The position numbers and the translations under genes were made by a program. DNA of 23,797 nucleotides, from positions 1-23,797 of IMG/VR virus record IMGVR_UViG_3300025011_002363. The stretch is one strand, 5' to 3'. Below, piece after piece: positions 4,098 through 23,797 of the stretch (position 1 is its first letter; each line of letters opens with the position of its first letter). This DNA comes from a virus. The notes beneath the pieces were generated by a model, which saw only the letters and a program-made list of their open reading frames with translations, had not been told where the DNA came from and made no database searches.

Positions 4098-4148
4098 ATA
4101 AAATATTTTTGAAAACTTTATTTTTTTATCAAATTAACATATATTTTG

Positions 4149-4197
4149 TCCCATTTATAGTGATTTTGGGGACAACCAATATTCACTATAAATGGGA
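4149..4197. promoter_or_regulatory. Perfect 15-base inverted repeat in the divergent late promoter region
   Basis: TCCCATTTATAGTGA (4149-4163) and its exact complement TCACTATAAATGGGA (4183-4197) flank a 19-base spacer. Each outward strand therefore reads the same TCACTATAAATGGGA toward its own operon. A TATAAA lies in each copy (4187-4192 plus; 4159-4154 minus) and could act as a -10 box; no good -35 is visible at 17 bases. The arms extend outward with four more A-T pairs after one G-T position. I infer a two-sided operator or activator site controlling both the packaging and the head operons. An RNA hairpin role is the alternative. Confidence 0.6.
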
Positions 4198-4277
4198 TAA
4201 AAAGCAGTTTATACTACATTTTAGATTTTCAAAAAAATAATTTTAAAAAACATAACCTAAACATAGGGGGATTTTCT

Positions 4278-7817: not shown

Positions 7818-9047
7818 ATGCCTGCAAACTTTCTTCACGGAGTTGAAACCATAGAAATCAAAAAGGGAACACGTTCCATCAGGACAGTAAAAACTGCTGT
7901 CATCGGTCTAGTGGGGACAGCTCCGATTAATACGGTCGAAGCGGATTATAAAACGGTGAATAAGCCTGTTTTAATCACAAATGATAAAGATGCGGTATTA
8001 TATTTTGGGCAACTGACAAGTGGATTTACTATTCCTACTGCGTTAAATGCAATATTTGATCAGGGGGCAGGAATTGTAATAGTTGTAAACGTTTTTGATC
8101 CTGCTATTCATACGGCGGTCGCTGATGTTGAACTTTCTGATGTCATCGGAGAGGTTGACACTCAAGGAAAAAGAACAGGTTTGCAGGCTTTTAAAGATGC
8201 TTATTCTTTATTTGGATTTTACCCAAAGACAATTATTTCCCCTAAATATTGCGAAGATGCTGCTGTTGCAACTGAAATAAATGCTGTAGCAGGAAACATA
8301 AGGGCAATTGGTATAATTGACGCTCCTGTTGGAACAACCGTACAGAATGTAATTACAGGAAGAGGATCGTCGGGGGCTATAAATTTTAACTTTAGCTCTG
8401 ACAGGCTTGTTCTTTGCTATCCGCACTTAAAAATCTACGATACTGCAAGCAATACAGAAAAACTTGAACCATATTCCCAAAGGCTCGCAGGGGTTATAGC
8501 AGCGAAGGATATTGAGAGAGGCTACCACTGGTCACCCTCAAATACTGAAATCAAAGGAATTATCGGCGCAGAAAGAAACCTAACTTCAATGATTAACGAC
8601 CCTTCAAGCGAAGTTAATCTGCTTAATGAAGCCGGAATTCTGACAGTCTTTAATTCCTTTGGCTCAGGCTTCAGAACATGGGGAAACAGAAATTCGGCTT
8701 ACCCTGCAAACACAGACCCGACTAATTTTATCAATATCAGGCGGACAGCAGATATAATCCACGAAAGCGTTGAATATTCGATGCTTCAGTTTATGGATTA
8801 CCCGATAGATAACGGTTTGATCGACTCCATTTGCGAATCCGTCAACGCTTTTATCAGGACTTTAATCGGTAGAGGCGCGTTAATTGACGGCAAGTGCAAG
8901 TTTAATCCTGCAAAAAACCCTCCTGCTGAAATCGCAAACGGACATTTATTATTCGATATTGAATTTATGCCGCCGACTCCTGCAGAAAGAATTACCTTCG
9001 AAAGTTTTATAAACATTGAATTATTAAGAAATTTGGGGGTTAGCTGA
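7818..9047 (+). CDS. Tail sheath protein, P2 FI-like
   Basis: This 409-residue protein has the sheath pattern: N-terminal FLHGVETIEIKKGTRSIRTVKTAVIGLVGTAP (residues 5-36), a variable middle, and a C-terminal contraction domain from about residue 260 with EVNLLNEAGILTVFNSFGSGFRTWGNRN and VEYSMLQFMDYPIDNGLIDSI. Sheath subunits form the contractile outer cylinder around the tail tube. Length matches P2 FI (about 395 residues). The gene overlaps the tube start by one base (TGATG). It is intact, unlike the tube gene beside it. Confidence 0.95.
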   Translation: MPANFLHGVETIEIKKGTRSIRTVKTAVIGLVGTAPINTVEADYKTVNKPVLITNDKDAVLYFGQLTSGFTIPTALNAIFDQGAGIVIVVNVFDPAIHTAVADVELSDVIGEVDTQGKRTGLQAFKDAYSLFGFYPKTIISPKYCEDAAVATEINAVAGNIRAIGIIDAPVGTTVQNVITGRGSSGAINFNFSSDRLVLCYPHLKIYDTASNTEKLEPYSQRLAGVIAAKDIERGYHWSPSNTEIKGIIGAERNLTSMINDPSSEVNLLNEAGILTVFNSFGSGFRTWGNRNSAYPANTDPTNFINIRRTADIIHESVEYSMLQFMDYPIDNGLIDSICESVNAFIRTLIGRGALIDGKCKFNPAKNPPAEIANGHLLFDIEFMPPTPAERITFESFINIELLRNLGVS

Positions 9048-20254: not shown

Positions 20255-20642
20255 AAATTTTTCGAAGACAGAAATAGCCTGTAAATGCTGCGGCAAAATT
20301 AATGTTAGTGATAAAGGCTTAATTTGTTTGCAGGCGTTCAGATATTACCTGAACAATAAGTTTAAAAAGAATATCAGGCTTAATATTGAGTCTGCTTGCA
20401 GGTGTATAAAGCATAACAAAGAAGAAGGCGGTGAAAAACTTTCCCGGCACGAATGTGAAACTAAAAAATCCGACGCATTTGACCTTACAAGCTCTGATAT
20501 TGATTACAGAACAATTTATCAGGAAGCTGTCGCCTGCAAGCTGTTTTCAACAGTTATCAGGTACGACAAGAAACATTTTGTTCATGTAGATACAAGACCT
20601 CGGGGAAATTACGGAATCGAAGCCTGGGGGTGGAACAAATGA
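20235..20642 (+). CDS. M15-type peptidase, probable endolysin
   Basis: This 135-residue protein follows the small M15 endolysin pattern: NFSKTEIACKCCG at the start, then IESACRCIKHNKEEGGEKLSRH (about residues 51-72), the Asp-containing SDAFDL, and FVHVDTR near 115-121. His72, the Asp of SDAFDL and the His of HVD would bind zinc. Family members cut the peptide stem of peptidoglycan. The usual spacing S-x-H-x2-G-x-A-x-D is stretched here: four extra residues (ECETKKSDAFD) lie between His and Asp. GGAGG stands about seven bases before the ATG. The stop overlaps the next start (ATGA). No holin is visible beside it. Confidence 0.82.
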   Translation: MLQVKIENFSKTEIACKCCGKINVSDKGLICLQAFRYYLNNKFKKNIRLNIESACRCIKHNKEEGGEKLSRHECETKKSDAFDLTSSDIDYRTIYQEAVACKLFSTVIRYDKKHFVHVDTRPRGNYGIEAWGWNK

Positions 20643-21256
20643 GCTGGAGAGACGGGCTTGACGCTCTGAATCTTAATAAAGGAGCTTTTCAAAGTTCAAA
20701 CGACTTCGGGATTCCCGATATGAAAAAACAGGATTTTGAAGTTAAAAACCTAATCCCTTACAGGGTAAATCAGGACAGGAACGGCACAGCGCACTTTTAT
20801 CTTGATGATTACAGGTTTGAAAGATGCTGGAATAATCCCTTGCAGCAATTAAAAAGCCTTAAAGAATATGAAGGAGTATTAACGCCTGATTTTTCCATGT
20901 ATCTTGATTATCCAAAAGCCTTGCAGGTGTGGCAAACTTACAGAAACCGCTGGCTCGGGTGTTACTGGCAGCAGGAAGGCTTTCAGGTAATCCCGACAAT
21001 AGGCTGGTCTGATAAATCAAGTTTTGAATTCGCTTTTTTAGGCGTGGAGAAACATTCAACTGTTTCTGTTGGAACTGTCGGCATTTTAAAAGATAAAAAT
21101 ACTGTAAAGCTTTTTCTTGCAGGGTTTGAAGAAATGTTAAGAAGAATAGAACCTTCCTGTGTTTTGGTTTATGGCAACAAAATCAGGGAACTCGAAGGTA
21201 TTTCATATATTAAATGGTTTCAGCCATACAGTAGTAAGTGGAACAAGGAGATTTAA
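20639..21256 (+). CDS. DUF4417 family protein of unknown function
   Basis: The ATG at 20639 overlaps the previous stop as ATGA, so I prefer it to the ATG at 20630; the protein has 205 residues from MSWRDGLD. It shows the DUF4417 signature: FYLDDYRFERCWNNPLQQL, YEGVLTPDFSMYLDYP, RNRWLGCYWQQEGFQVIPTIGW, then SFEFAFLGVEKHSTVSVGTVG. The family is common in phages and mobile elements and has no established biochemical role that I can name. The position after the lysis genes suggests accessory function. It ends two bases before the basic GGRGS protein, and the two may act together. Confidence 0.85.
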   Translation: MSWRDGLDALNLNKGAFQSSNDFGIPDMKKQDFEVKNLIPYRVNQDRNGTAHFYLDDYRFERCWNNPLQQLKSLKEYEGVLTPDFSMYLDYPKALQVWQTYRNRWLGCYWQQEGFQVIPTIGWSDKSSFEFAFLGVEKHSTVSVGTVGILKDKNTVKLFLAGFEEMLRRIEPSCVLVYGNKIRELEGISYIKWFQPYSSKWNKEI

Positions 21257-21258
21257 TC

Positions 21259-21747
21259 ATGGGCGGACGTGGATCAAAAAGCGGAGCAAAAAATTCTACA
21301 AAAAGTAGTGCTGCAAAATCTGAAATTACAAAGCCGACAAAAGCTGTAGCGTTGCCTCAACCTGAAACACAAACTGCCGGTCGTAAAAGCCAAATGATGG
21401 ATTTATTAGGTCAAAGAGTTACTAAGGCGCACATAGCTTCTATGTCAAATGAACAACTTAAAAAATACGCTAAAGATAACTATAAAGTTAGTAAAAAGTT
21501 AAACAAAAAGTACAGAGAAGCTGATACCAATGTAGTGTCTTCTCAAAAAATAGTACGTAATCTTGAACCGCTAGTGAAAAGATATAACGACCCTACAGAT
21601 AAAAATGAACTTGCTAAAGCAAGAAGGCGGGTTACAAAAAACCAAAAAATATTGAAAGAAACCAGAACAAAAATAAATATTAATGAGCAAAACCTTTCAA
21701 AAGCTTTTGATGAAAGCGATAAAAGAGGCATTAACCTTTTTAATTAA
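21259..21747 (+). CDS. Basic GGRGS-motif protein, function unknown
   Basis: The ATG at 21259 follows AAGGAG by eight bases; a TTG at 21238 lies inside the previous gene and is unlikely. The protein has 162 residues, is strongly basic, and begins MGGRGSKSG. This glycine-arginine start recurs in phage and element proteins, several linked to DUF4417 or minor head proteins; I know of no proven role. After a low-complexity Ser/Lys/Thr region (to about residue 50) comes a helical part with HIASMSNEQLKKYAKDNYK and a coiled-coil segment rich in Lys, Arg, Asn and Glu to the end. DNA or RNA binding is possible on charge alone. Confidence 0.6.
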   Translation: MGGRGSKSGAKNSTKSSAAKSEITKPTKAVALPQPETQTAGRKSQMMDLLGQRVTKAHIASMSNEQLKKYAKDNYKVSKKLNKKYREADTNVVSSQKIVRNLEPLVKRYNDPTDKNELAKARRRVTKNQKILKETRTKININEQNLSKAFDESDKRGINLFN

Positions 21748-21852
21748 TATGTCCGAATGATAAAGAATTACCTAAATTTCTATGTTTAGAGTTCCATTTC
21801 AGGAACAACGAGTTAAAATGTCAATGTTAGCAATAATCAGAAGGGCTTAAGA
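21747..21852 (+). promoter_or_regulatory. Candidate promoter region with ATATGTCCGAA half-site
   Basis: ATATGTCCGAATGATA at 21747-21762 matches the left arm of the inverted repeat at 23372-23417 (ATATGTCCGAAAGATA). About 60 bases on, AACGAG and TTAAAAT at 21807-21819 resemble AACGAGGTAGAAT at 23434-23446, whose spacing is 59. TAAAAT (21814-21819) could be a -10 box. GTTCC-N6-GGAAC (21791-21806) is a small palindrome just upstream. AGAAGGG is the ribosome site for the gene at 21853. A shared regulator is inferred. Confidence 0.45.
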
Positions 21853-22086
21853 ATGGATTTAGCATTCGGTACAAAGGTTTACGACTATAATAAAAATGAT
21901 ATCGGAATTTTAATTCAGTCTTACAATCTTGGTTATATTGATGCCCCTGATAAATATGGCGCACAAGTCCTGGCGCCAACAGGGAAAATTTATGCTGCCA
22001 ACCTGGACAACCTTCTCCCAATATGCGATATAGATGAAGAAGAAATTAAAACCCTGAATATTCCTGAATGTTTTTTAATTGATTAA
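21853..22086 (+). CDS. Small acidic hypothetical protein
   Basis: This 77-residue protein is not a family I recognise. It starts at an ATG after AGAAGGG, and begins MDLAFGTKVYDYNKNDIGILIQSYN, a beta-rich pattern; then GAQVLAPTGKIYAANLDNLLPI and an acidic end with DIDEEEIKTLNIPE. No membrane segment, cysteine pair or catalytic motif is visible. It is the first gene after the promoter-like region and is followed 27 bases later by another orphan gene, so the two probably form a short operon. It may be an early or accessory phage function, but nothing in the sequence shows which. Confidence 0.6.
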   Translation: MDLAFGTKVYDYNKNDIGILIQSYNLGYIDAPDKYGAQVLAPTGKIYAANLDNLLPICDIDEEEIKTLNIPECFLID

Positions 22087-22113
22087 TTATAAAATTACGG
22101 AAAGGATATAAAG

Positions 22114-22416
22114 ATGACAGAGATTCAAAAAACAAAAAATAAAAAATGGGGCTTTTATGGCACAATCAAGCACGATTGTACAACAAAAAAAGAAGTAGAA
22201 AAAAAGTGGGCAGAAGCTTTTATTACATTAAAAGAACTTTCAGATTTGCCAAATGACATTATACGTAGATTTTTAGATTCCCAAGCCGGACGCCACCTTG
22301 CAGATAGATGTTATGATCAAGGTGAAGTGGCAAATACAATTAGAAAAGAATGGGATGGATTCAAAAGAACTATTTTTTCAAGAGAATACGAAGTTTCTGA
22401 CGAAGAATTTTACTAA
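22114..22416 (+). CDS. Hypothetical protein with RFLDSQAGRHLAD motif
   Basis: This 100-residue soluble protein starts after GGAAAGGA at the right distance. A conserved-looking segment IIRRFLDSQAGRHLADRCYD lies at residues 49-68, and WGFYGTIK near residues 12-19. I recall similar FLDSxxGRHxAD motifs in small mobile-element proteins of unknown function. It is mainly helical and has no signal peptide. It ends 11 bases before the 3' end of the convergent mrr gene, with no clear terminator between them. Role unknown. Confidence 0.65.
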   Translation: MTEIQKTKNKKWGFYGTIKHDCTTKKEVEKKWAEAFITLKELSDLPNDIIRRFLDSQAGRHLADRCYDQGEVANTIRKEWDGFKRTIFSREYEVSDEEFY

Positions 22417-22427
22417 GAATAGCAGCT

Positions 22428-22934
22428 TTATACCTCAGGATTTTTATACATAGCCAGATTTACTTTTTTCAACTCATAATTTTTTACCGGCACAACTCCA
22501 AAATTATAATCTATCATAAATTCTACAAGTTTTTTTCCGTCAATTAGCACTATATTTTTAGAAGTAATGGTCTCAATGTATTCATAAGTTTTTTTAGAAA
22601 AACTTGACGAAGTAATAAATATACCTTTGTTTACCTTATCACCTAAACTGCCTACAAAATCACGTACTTCACCACCCGGGACAGTTTTTTCATGTTTTTT
22701 AGCTTGAATGTAAATTTGGCCTTTAAATCCAAAAGGATCTTCAAGTATTTTTCCATCAACTCCGCCATCACCGCTTTTTTGAGTAACATAAGAATGTTTT
22801 TCATCACCATATCCCATACTCAAAACCATATCAAGTGCCAGTTTTTCAAAGAAACTATCATTTAAGCTTTTTATTTCATTCAATAATTCGGTTTCCAGAT
22901 TAGTCATATACTCTTTAAAGCTGGAGTCAATCAA
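22428..22934 (-). pseudogene. mrr: Mrr-type restriction endonuclease, C-terminal catalytic fragment (frameshifted)
   Basis: This fragment holds the Mrr catalytic domain: SFFEKLALDMVLSMGYG (residues 27-43), then GDGGVDG with Asp60, and IYIQAKKH with Gln77 and Lys79, the D...QxK core that cuts DNA. GEVRDFVGSL and KGIFITSSSFS are also typical. The M at 22934 sits at ATTGAC/ATGAC-type codons in the middle of the linker and has no clear ribosome site, so I read it as the severed C-terminus. The frame upstream continues as KEIEDSFTNQTPES, which joins the N-terminal fragment if one A is restored (CAAAGG to CAAAAGG). Intact Mrr enzymes cut foreign methylated DNA. Confidence 0.85.
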
Positions 22935-23314
22935 AGATTCAGGGGTTTGATTTGTGAATGAGTCTTCAATTTCCTTTGAAGGTATTCAATAAATTCCGGA
23001 TATTGTTTTAAAAAGCTTTTGTCTATTTTTGCAGGTTTACTTTTTAAAACATCCAAGCCTCTTTTGGTGATTTTAAAAACACCCCTTTTAGTAGATTCAA
23101 TTAAACAGGCATTTTTTAAGTATTTATTTGCCCAATTGATTCTATCGTAAAGAATTGTTGATGTGCCGCTTGGAAGTAACTCTTCTTTTTCTTTTTCAGT
23201 AAGTTTAAATTGCCTGGACAAAATTTCCAAAAGTTCTTTGTAGCCATACTCTTTAGAATCCTTAACGGTATTTAACAAAGGAAGCATAAACTCTTCATAA
23301 GTAGGTATAGGCAT
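22931..23314 (-). pseudogene. mrr: Mrr-type restriction endonuclease, N-terminal winged-helix fragment (frameshifted)
   Basis: The likely start is the ATG at 23314 (MPIPTYEEFMLPLLN), preceded by TTGGAG at the right distance; a TTG at 23335 would add seven poorly conserved residues. The 127-residue product matches the Mrr N-terminal domain: EYGYKELLEILSRQFKLTEKEKEELLPSG, then ILYDRINWANKYLKNACLIES and GVFKITKRGLDVL. This domain reads the DNA target. The reading ends in out-of-frame residues (RKLKTHSQIKPLNL) and a TGA. The true continuation is in the next frame. The gene points away from the inverted-repeat region at 23372-23417, which probably holds its promoter. Confidence 0.85.
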
Positions 23315-23371
23315 TTTCACACTCCAACAATTCAAATAACTCTCTTTTTATATCATAAATTTACATAAATT

Positions 23372-23417
23372 GATATATGTCCGAAAGATACAAAAACGTA
23401 AAATTCGGACATATATC
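23372..23417. promoter_or_regulatory. Perfect 14-base inverted repeat between mrr and the next gene
   Basis: GATATATGTCCGAA (23372-23385) and TTCGGACATATATC (23404-23417) are exact complements around an 18-base spacer, in a divergent intergenic region. Arm centres are 32 bases apart, close to three helical turns, which suits two dimers on one DNA face or one looped tetramer. AGGAGG and TTG at 23480 serve the gene downstream. The half-site is repeated at 21747. A repressor or activator operator is inferred. Confidence 0.6.
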
Positions 23418-23479
23418 GACTATTTTTAAGCAGAACGAGGTAGAATCAGCAAGGTTAAAGAATTACAGGAGGAAAAACC

Positions 23480-23797
23480 TTGCAGAGTATGGATTTTAAA
23501 ACTTTTATTAACGGTGTAGGCAACGACTTAAAAACTTCTATCGATGATGTAATCGGTGCAATTATTACAATTCAGGAGGATGTGGCAAGTCTTAAAACCA
23601 AAACATCAAAGCCTGACAAAGATACTGCAAAGGCTTTGCTTGAATATATCGGTATGGACGAAGGTAAAACCAAACAAAACCTTGAAGCTCTTTGTGGTAA
23701 GGAACTTCAAAAGCATTTAAAATGGCTAAGCGATTATTGTTTTAAATATAATTGCACTCAGGAAGAAGCCCTGCAAAGAATAATCGACAGAAATTAA
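23480..23797 (+). CDS. Small helical hypothetical protein
   Basis: This 105-residue protein starts at TTG 23480, seven bases after a perfect AGGAGG; the ATG at 23489 is possible but 16 bases away. It is mostly helical (MQSMDFKTFINGVGNDLKTS, IDDVIGAIITIQEDVASLKTK), with a lysine-rich linker (SKPDKDTAK) and a second helical half ending NCTQEEALQRIIDRN. One Cys pair (Cys67-like and two in the C-terminal half) is not arranged as a clear zinc site. I recognise no family. It is the first gene after the 23372-23417 inverted repeat and ends exactly at the window edge. A regulatory or early phage role is possible only from position. Confidence 0.6.
   Translation: MQSMDFKTFINGVGNDLKTSIDDVIGAIITIQEDVASLKTKTSKPDKDTAKALLEYIGMDEGKTKQNLEALCGKELQKHLKWLSDYCFKYNCTQEEALQRIIDRN

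What the first reader, a model, noticed from the sequence alone, without database searches (positions are those of the whole stretch)
21747..23479. Two accessory genes share a promoter layout built on ATATGTCCGAA
ATATGTCCGAA-N-GATA occurs at 21747 and 23375. At nearly the same distance (60 and 59 bases) both have AACGAG followed by TA-AAT (TTAAAAT or GTAGAAT), and start codons are 106 and 105 bases from the motif. The middle has diverged. This argues for co-regulation of the 21853 operon and the 23480 gene by one factor; the second site is in a perfect 14-base inverted repeat, the first a half-site.
Basis: seen in the sequence. Interest (0 to 1): 0.6.

Follow-up and report, generated by a model that had tools for sequence, protein, structure and literature searches.

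The report
Repeated control element of Gastranaerophilales phages
The two matching stretches are two worn copies of a short control element, apparently undescribed, that sits in front of almost every optional gene cassette in Mu-like viruses of an uncultured gut cyanobacterial lineage, and in front of transposase genes of related jumping elements, so it probably switches those genes on together.

Summary
In detail: ATATGTCCGAA-N-GATA at 21747 and 23375, AACGAG-TAnAAT 60/59 bases on, start codons at 106/105, and perfect 14-base inverted arms in copy B. Within the window alone the layout is not beyond chance; outside evidence decides it. Relatives of this phage are Mu-like prophages of Candidatus Gastranaerophilales. 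They carry mostly 2-4 copies of an element: Box 1 (TGTGTCNRAATGATACNRAA), about 36 variable bases with a weak ACTTSAWNTT box, and Box 3 (GAGTGATKAATGT) at a fixed 54-55 bp. It lies just after the preceding stop codon and before the next cassette gene. The same element precedes the Mu/TniA-type transposase and a small operon in related transposons. A Box 1 matrix built without the window ranks the two window sites first and second on both strands. Spacing classes one helical turn apart, lack of consistent covariation, and -35/-10-like spacing of Boxes 2 and 3 favour an activator-dependent promoter over an RNA. Copies are also junctions of cassette mosaicism. The window's Box 3 is diverged, so its -10 is inferred. 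The activator is unknown; a Mor-family protein is a candidate for the phages only. No transcription was measured.

The parts
21747..21764 (+). Box 1, copy A (ATATGTCCGAATGATAAA); TGTC starts at 21750, two bases after the stop codon of the upstream gene (ends 21747)
   Evidence: exact motif; second best site of the window with a matrix built from relatives, 18.3 bits; nhmmer 21748-21827
21791..21800 (+). Box 2-like stretch, copy A (GTTCCATTTC), like the middle box of transposase-leading copies
   Evidence: read from sequence and compared with copies; weak
21807..21827 (+). Box 3, copy A (AACGAGTTAAAATGTCAATGT); inferred -10 TAAAAT at 21814-21819
   Evidence: aligned to GAGTGATTAATGTnAATGT by nhmmer; Box 3 matrix alone does not score; -10 is inference
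21853..22086 (+). first gene of the led operon, 77 aa, related to small proteins of element-led cassettes (FGTKV..IGIL family)
   Evidence: 35% identity over 57 aa to the L035 cassette protein, E 2e-10; similar proteins follow element copies
22114..22416 (+). second gene of the operon, 100 aa, phrog_8020, unknown function
   Evidence: the L038 homolog (45%) directly follows an element copy at 8371
23375..23392 (+). Box 1, copy B (ATATGTCCGAAAGATACA); TGTC starts at 23378
   Evidence: exact motif; best site of the window with the relatives' matrix, 21.3 bits
23372..23417 (.). perfect 14-nt inverted repeat around copy B (arms 23372-23385 and 23404-23417, spacer 18); a second, inverted Box 1 core facing mrr
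23434..23446 (+). Box 3 position, copy B (AACGAGGTAGAAT); inferred -10 TAGAAT at 23441-23446
   Evidence: homology with Box 3 of relatives rests on position only
23480..23797 (+). gene led by copy B, 105 aa, TTG start after AGGAGG, unknown function
   Evidence: no relatives found

Best explanation
The two sites are diverged members of a family of activator-dependent promoters that lead accessory gene cassettes in Mu-like transposable phages of Candidatus Gastranaerophilales, and that also lead the TniA/Mu-type transposase gene and a small accessory operon in related transposons. Box 1 (TGTGTCNRAATGATACNRAA, imperfect dyad GTGTC-N5-GATAC) is the binding site of a dimeric activator. Boxes 2 and 3 are a weak -35 and a non-consensus -10. 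The activator sits about 61-63 bp upstream of the start point, or one helical turn further (about -70 in the window), as in class I activation, and recruits RNA polymerase. In the window this would switch on the 21853-22416 operon and the 23480 gene together. Because every cassette carries the same leader, homologous recombination between leaders can swap cassettes while keeping them under the same control. Shown: the element, its conservation, position, orientation, spacing and mosaicism. Inferred: promoter function, start point, activator, and when it acts.
For: 86 distinct copies with near-invariant Box 1 and Box 3 at 54 or 55 bp in 78 of them. 70 of 73 copies lie beside the upstream stop codon and all 73 are followed by an ORF start within 60 nt. 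In 383 genomes of the order, 75 have the two-box pattern and the reversed control has none; match lengths are 59-62 or 72 only, i.e. one helical turn apart (also 0 control hits). No consistent base-pair covariation among same-length copies. Box 2 TTGATA/TTGATG lies 17-18 bp before GATNAAT in many copies (sequences). Copies lead transposase genes as well as cassettes. Both window sites are the top two Box 1 sites.
Against: No transcription start is known. Box 3 is a poor match to TATAAT in relatives. The 72-bp class may descend from one insertion, so the helical argument is not fully independent; the window spacing (63-64 aligned on GAG) is 8-10 bp, not exactly 10.5, longer. Strong hairpins in part of the copies (z down to -8) are not explained by a promoter. 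The activator is not identified, and the Mor-family candidate is missing from nine genomes with transposon copies only. Window Box 3 does not match the relatives' matrix.
Confidence: 0.55

Rival explanations
1. A structured 5' leader RNA: Box 1 is or overlaps the promoter (extended -10-like TGATACRAAA), and the transcript carries the variable hairpin plus Box 3 as a translational or antitermination control of each cassette.
For: Mean fold z -1.6, about a third of copies strongly folded, down to -8; Box 1 can form GUGUC-N5-GAUAC; Box 3 lies close before the start codon, especially in transposase genes.
Against: Median z only about -1, no position-wise covariation, rigid 54/55 spacing, no Rfam match.
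Confidence: 0.2
2. Operator of a repressor: Box 1 and the copy B palindrome bind a phage or transposon repressor that silences transposase and cassettes in the dormant state.
For: Box 1 is an imperfect dyad; copy B has a second inverted core; a small HTH_3 gene lies divergently beside Box 1 in some transposons.
Against: Box 1 lies about 60 bp upstream of the inferred start at a fixed distance, unusual for simple repression; most copies have no adjacent HTH gene; copies are far from the phage early region.
Confidence: 0.13
3. The element is mainly a recombination site that organises an exchangeable cassette array (attC-like or by homologous recombination), with regulation secondary.
For: 98 pairs of copies share upstream but not downstream sequence, 168 the reverse; conserved ends around a variable, often palindromic middle.
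Against: Box 1 and Box 3 are not inverted copies of each other; fixed orientation and position before start codons; single copies before transposase genes are not arrays; plain homologous recombination at any repeat explains the mosaicism.
Confidence: 0.08
4. Box 1 is a transposase end-binding site.
For: About 20 bp, begins TGT, present next to transposase genes and, inverted, at the other side of transposons.
Against: Homology of duplicate transposons extends more than 300 bp upstream of Box 1. In the transposon beside tRNA-Ser repeats of a different sequence, TGTACGGATA..GATTATTTG, lie at the right end. Phage copies lie internally.
Confidence: 0.03

Closest known systems
Start-associated sequences (SAS) and extended SAS of Cluster K mycobacteriophages (PMC3203893)
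   Same: Repeated, mostly one-orientation elements just upstream of start codons of scattered phage genes, two conserved boxes around a variable spacer, function inferred from conservation.
   Different: Different sequence; ESAS boxes are 17-bp imperfect inverted repeats, here Box 1 and Box 3 are unrelated; spacing here is rigid; here the element also leads transposase genes in transposons.
Mu middle promoter Pm with activator Mor (PMC4390567)
   Same: Mu-like phage, sub-consensus promoter, dyad of two 5-bp half sites in 15-16 bp, and a Mor-family gene in the relatives' early region.
   Different: Mor site is centred at -43.5 and replaces the -35; Box 1 is inferred near -61 or -70. Copies also occur in genomes without a detectable Mor.
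P2 late promoters with activator Ogr, TGT-N12-ACA (PMC3931495)
   Same: One activator drives several units through a repeated upstream TGT...ACA-type dyad.
   Different: TGT-N11-AC with a non-conserved third base instead of TGT-N12-ACA; leads accessory cassettes, not the structural operons.
Class I activation as by CRP at -61.5 / -72.5 (own knowledge)
   Same: Inferred activator position and tolerance of one extra helical turn.
   Different: Site sequence differs; CRP-type HTH only below cut-off in the carrier genomes tested.

Membership tests
Cluster K SAS/ESAS | 13-bp SAS GGGATAGGAGCCC at the start codon and 17-bp imperfect inverted repeats upstream | tested here: not met
   consensus of 86 copies is TGTGTCNRAATGATACNRAA and GATKAATGTNNATGTA, which are not inverted repeats; SAS definition
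Cluster K SAS/ESAS | repeated element before start codons, one orientation | tested here: met
Mu Mor/C-dependent promoters | phage encodes a Mor/C-family activator | tested here: inconclusive
   relatives encode one with 21-22.8 bits, below the Pfam cut-off of 24.9; the window's own early region is not in the record
Mu Mor/C-dependent promoters | 16-bp dyad with 5-bp repeats centred at -43.5 | tested here: not met
   15-bp imperfect dyad, inferred centre -61 to -73; start point not measured
Mu Mor/C-dependent promoters | activator present wherever the promoter is | tested here: not met
   no Mor match in nine genomes with element copies
P2 Ogr-dependent late promoters | TGT-N12-ACA | tested here: not met
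   TGT-N11-AC, third base 55% A
LexA (SOS) promoters | host encodes LexA | tested here: inconclusive
   no LexA_DNA_bind match in 3 of 5 carrier genomes, one over the cut-off
Known structured RNA families (Rfam 15) | covariance-model match | tested here: not met
   no match up to E 1 in window, L035, L038, L041
Transposase end-binding site | located at the element's termini | tested here: not met
Any activated promoter | transcription start at a fixed distance after Box 3, dependent on Box 1 | not testable with these tools
   needs RNA mapping and reporter assays

The most novel reading that the evidence does not exclude
One regulatory code is shared by different kinds of mobile elements in one bacterial order: Mu-like phages and TniA-type transposons place transposase and accessory cassettes under the same element, so a single host-borne or element-borne factor couples the activity of several resident mobile elements.
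Probability: 0.35. Interest if true: 0.7.

Novelty: new variant of a known kind. Interest (0 to 1): 0.5.

Why it matters
It gives a searchable marker that locates prophages, transposons and their small unknown cargo genes in uncultured Gastranaerophilales, on whose prophages I found almost no literature. It predicts a regulon of accessory genes with a common switch, and suggests how cassette arrays can be reshuffled without losing control of expression.

Tried and rejected
Exact 16-mer scan of IMG/VR: 27 matches without shared context, treated as chance. Close-relative searches with the 21853 and 23480 proteins: none. blastn of 21600-23797, and of a relative's element, against known phages: none. 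RNA family and covariation: none. Box 1 as prophage terminus or transposase end: first favoured because upstream flanks differed, dropped after comparing duplicate transposons and a right end. LexA or CRP as factor: LexA not detected in 3 of 5 genomes, CRP-type HTH only below cut-off. Same motif before the structural genes: not seen. The inverted Box 1 of copy B as promoter site for mrr: a TATAAA lies 59 bp away against 63-64 for the two plus-strand copies, so not claimed. Generic in-window significance test: not significant, kept in the report.

Full report
Observation. The sequence is as described: Box 1 cores at 21747 and 23375, AACGAG-TAnAAT at 21807 and 23434, starts at 21853 and 23480, and perfect 14-nt arms around copy B. 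A generic in-window test of 'shared 11-mer plus shared 6-mer at matched offset' is not significant, so the pair needed outside evidence.

Origin. The window is an IMG/VR virus record. Its tail-sheath protein is 72-76% identical to proteins of prophages in the order of G005, and its DUF4417 protein 55-61% to proteins mostly in MAGs labelled Candidatus Gastranaerophilales. A complete relative in G002 (contig 3, about 8-49.6 kb) has head and tail genes, then accessory cassettes, then a convergent early region with Mu/TniA-type transposases, AAA proteins, a GemA homolog and a Mor-family protein. So this is a Mu-like transposable phage.

The element. In relatives the accessory region holds mostly 2-4, up to about 5, copies of one element. 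From 86 distinct copies: Box 1 TGTGTCNRAATGATACNRAA, most positions 94-100% conserved; Box 3 GATKAATGTNNATGTA preceded by AGAGT; distance 54 or 55 in 78 of 86. A weak middle box reads ACTTSAWNTT; in many copies TTGATA/TTGATG lies 17-18 bp before GATNAAT. Of 73 copies, 70 start beside the stop codon of the upstream ORF (most often 3 nt away) and all 73 have an ORF start within 60 nt after Box 3 (median 29).

Spread. Genome-wide scans show the element directly before transposase genes and before a small operon (MIELGKK.., MTEKDY..) in transposons without phage genes. The two-box pattern occurs in 75 of 383 genomes of the order and never in the reversed control; match lengths are 59-62 or 72, nothing between, although 52-82 was allowed. 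The extra 10-11 bp lies between Box 1 and the middle box.

The window copies. A Box 1 matrix built without the window ranks 23378 and 21750 first and second of both strands (21.3 and 18.3 bits, next 5.3; shuffled maxima average 6.1, one outlier 18.6). nhmmer aligns 21748-21827 to the whole element. Box 1 to Box 3, aligned on GAG, is 63-64 here, near the longer spacing class. The window's Box 3 resembles a sigma-70 -10 (TAAAAT, TAGAAT) more than the relatives' Box 3 and does not score with their matrix, so its homology in copy B rests on position. The first operon gene is related to small proteins of element-led cassettes, and the homolog of the second directly follows a copy in L038.

Mechanism. 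Rigid spacing, spacing classes one helical turn apart, absence of covariation and -35/-10-like spacing of Boxes 2 and 3 favour a DNA-level, activator-dependent promoter with the activator near -61 or one turn further. This is inference; no start point is known. Against it, about a third of the copies have strong but unrelated hairpins in the middle, which keeps a leader-RNA model alive. The activator is not identified: the Mor-family gene is found with the full phages only, LexA and CRP-type regulators are missing or weak, and a small HTH_3 gene lies next to some transposon copies only.

Mosaicism. Among 83 copies, 98 pairs have homologous upstream but unrelated downstream sequence and 168 the reverse; L054 and L055 share the element up to Box 3 and then enter different genes. 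The leaders are exchange points, most simply by homologous recombination.

Verdict. Real, conserved, and not described in the libraries searched. In kind it is close to start-associated repeats of mycobacteriophages (PMC3203893) and to Mor- and Ogr-type promoters (PMC4390567, PMC3931495), and it fails at least one tested defining feature of each.

Noticed in passing
window 22428-23335 (-): A Mrr-type restriction endonuclease gene (Mrr_N, then Mrr_cat) sits between the two led units, on the opposite strand, and is split over two reading frames near 22931-22990: disrupted gene or sequencing error.
   Followed up: partly
window 4144-4202: A 27-nt inverted repeat (85% complementary, 5-nt gap) lies between the divergent structural operons, a candidate operator or bidirectional late promoter; the two relatives compared do not share it.
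   Followed up: partly
L151 2000-10000; L147/L148; L150: Gastranaerophilales carry transposons with TniA/TniB-like proteins, a second Mu-type transposase and cargo genes; one lies beside a tRNA-Ser gene, with repeats TGTACGGATA..GATTATTTG at that end.
   Followed up: partly
L134 17060-17857: The first element-led gene of the prophage accessory region is a DUF4268 protein, with apparent counterparts in many relatives.
   Followed up: no
window 20630-21256: A DUF4417 / phrog_940 'nuclease' protein marks the border between tail and accessory regions and is a good anchor for finding this phage group.
   Followed up: yes
window 23480-23797: The record ends exactly at the stop codon of the copy B gene, as if trimmed at a gene boundary, so the early region and the activator are probably just outside.
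   Followed up: no
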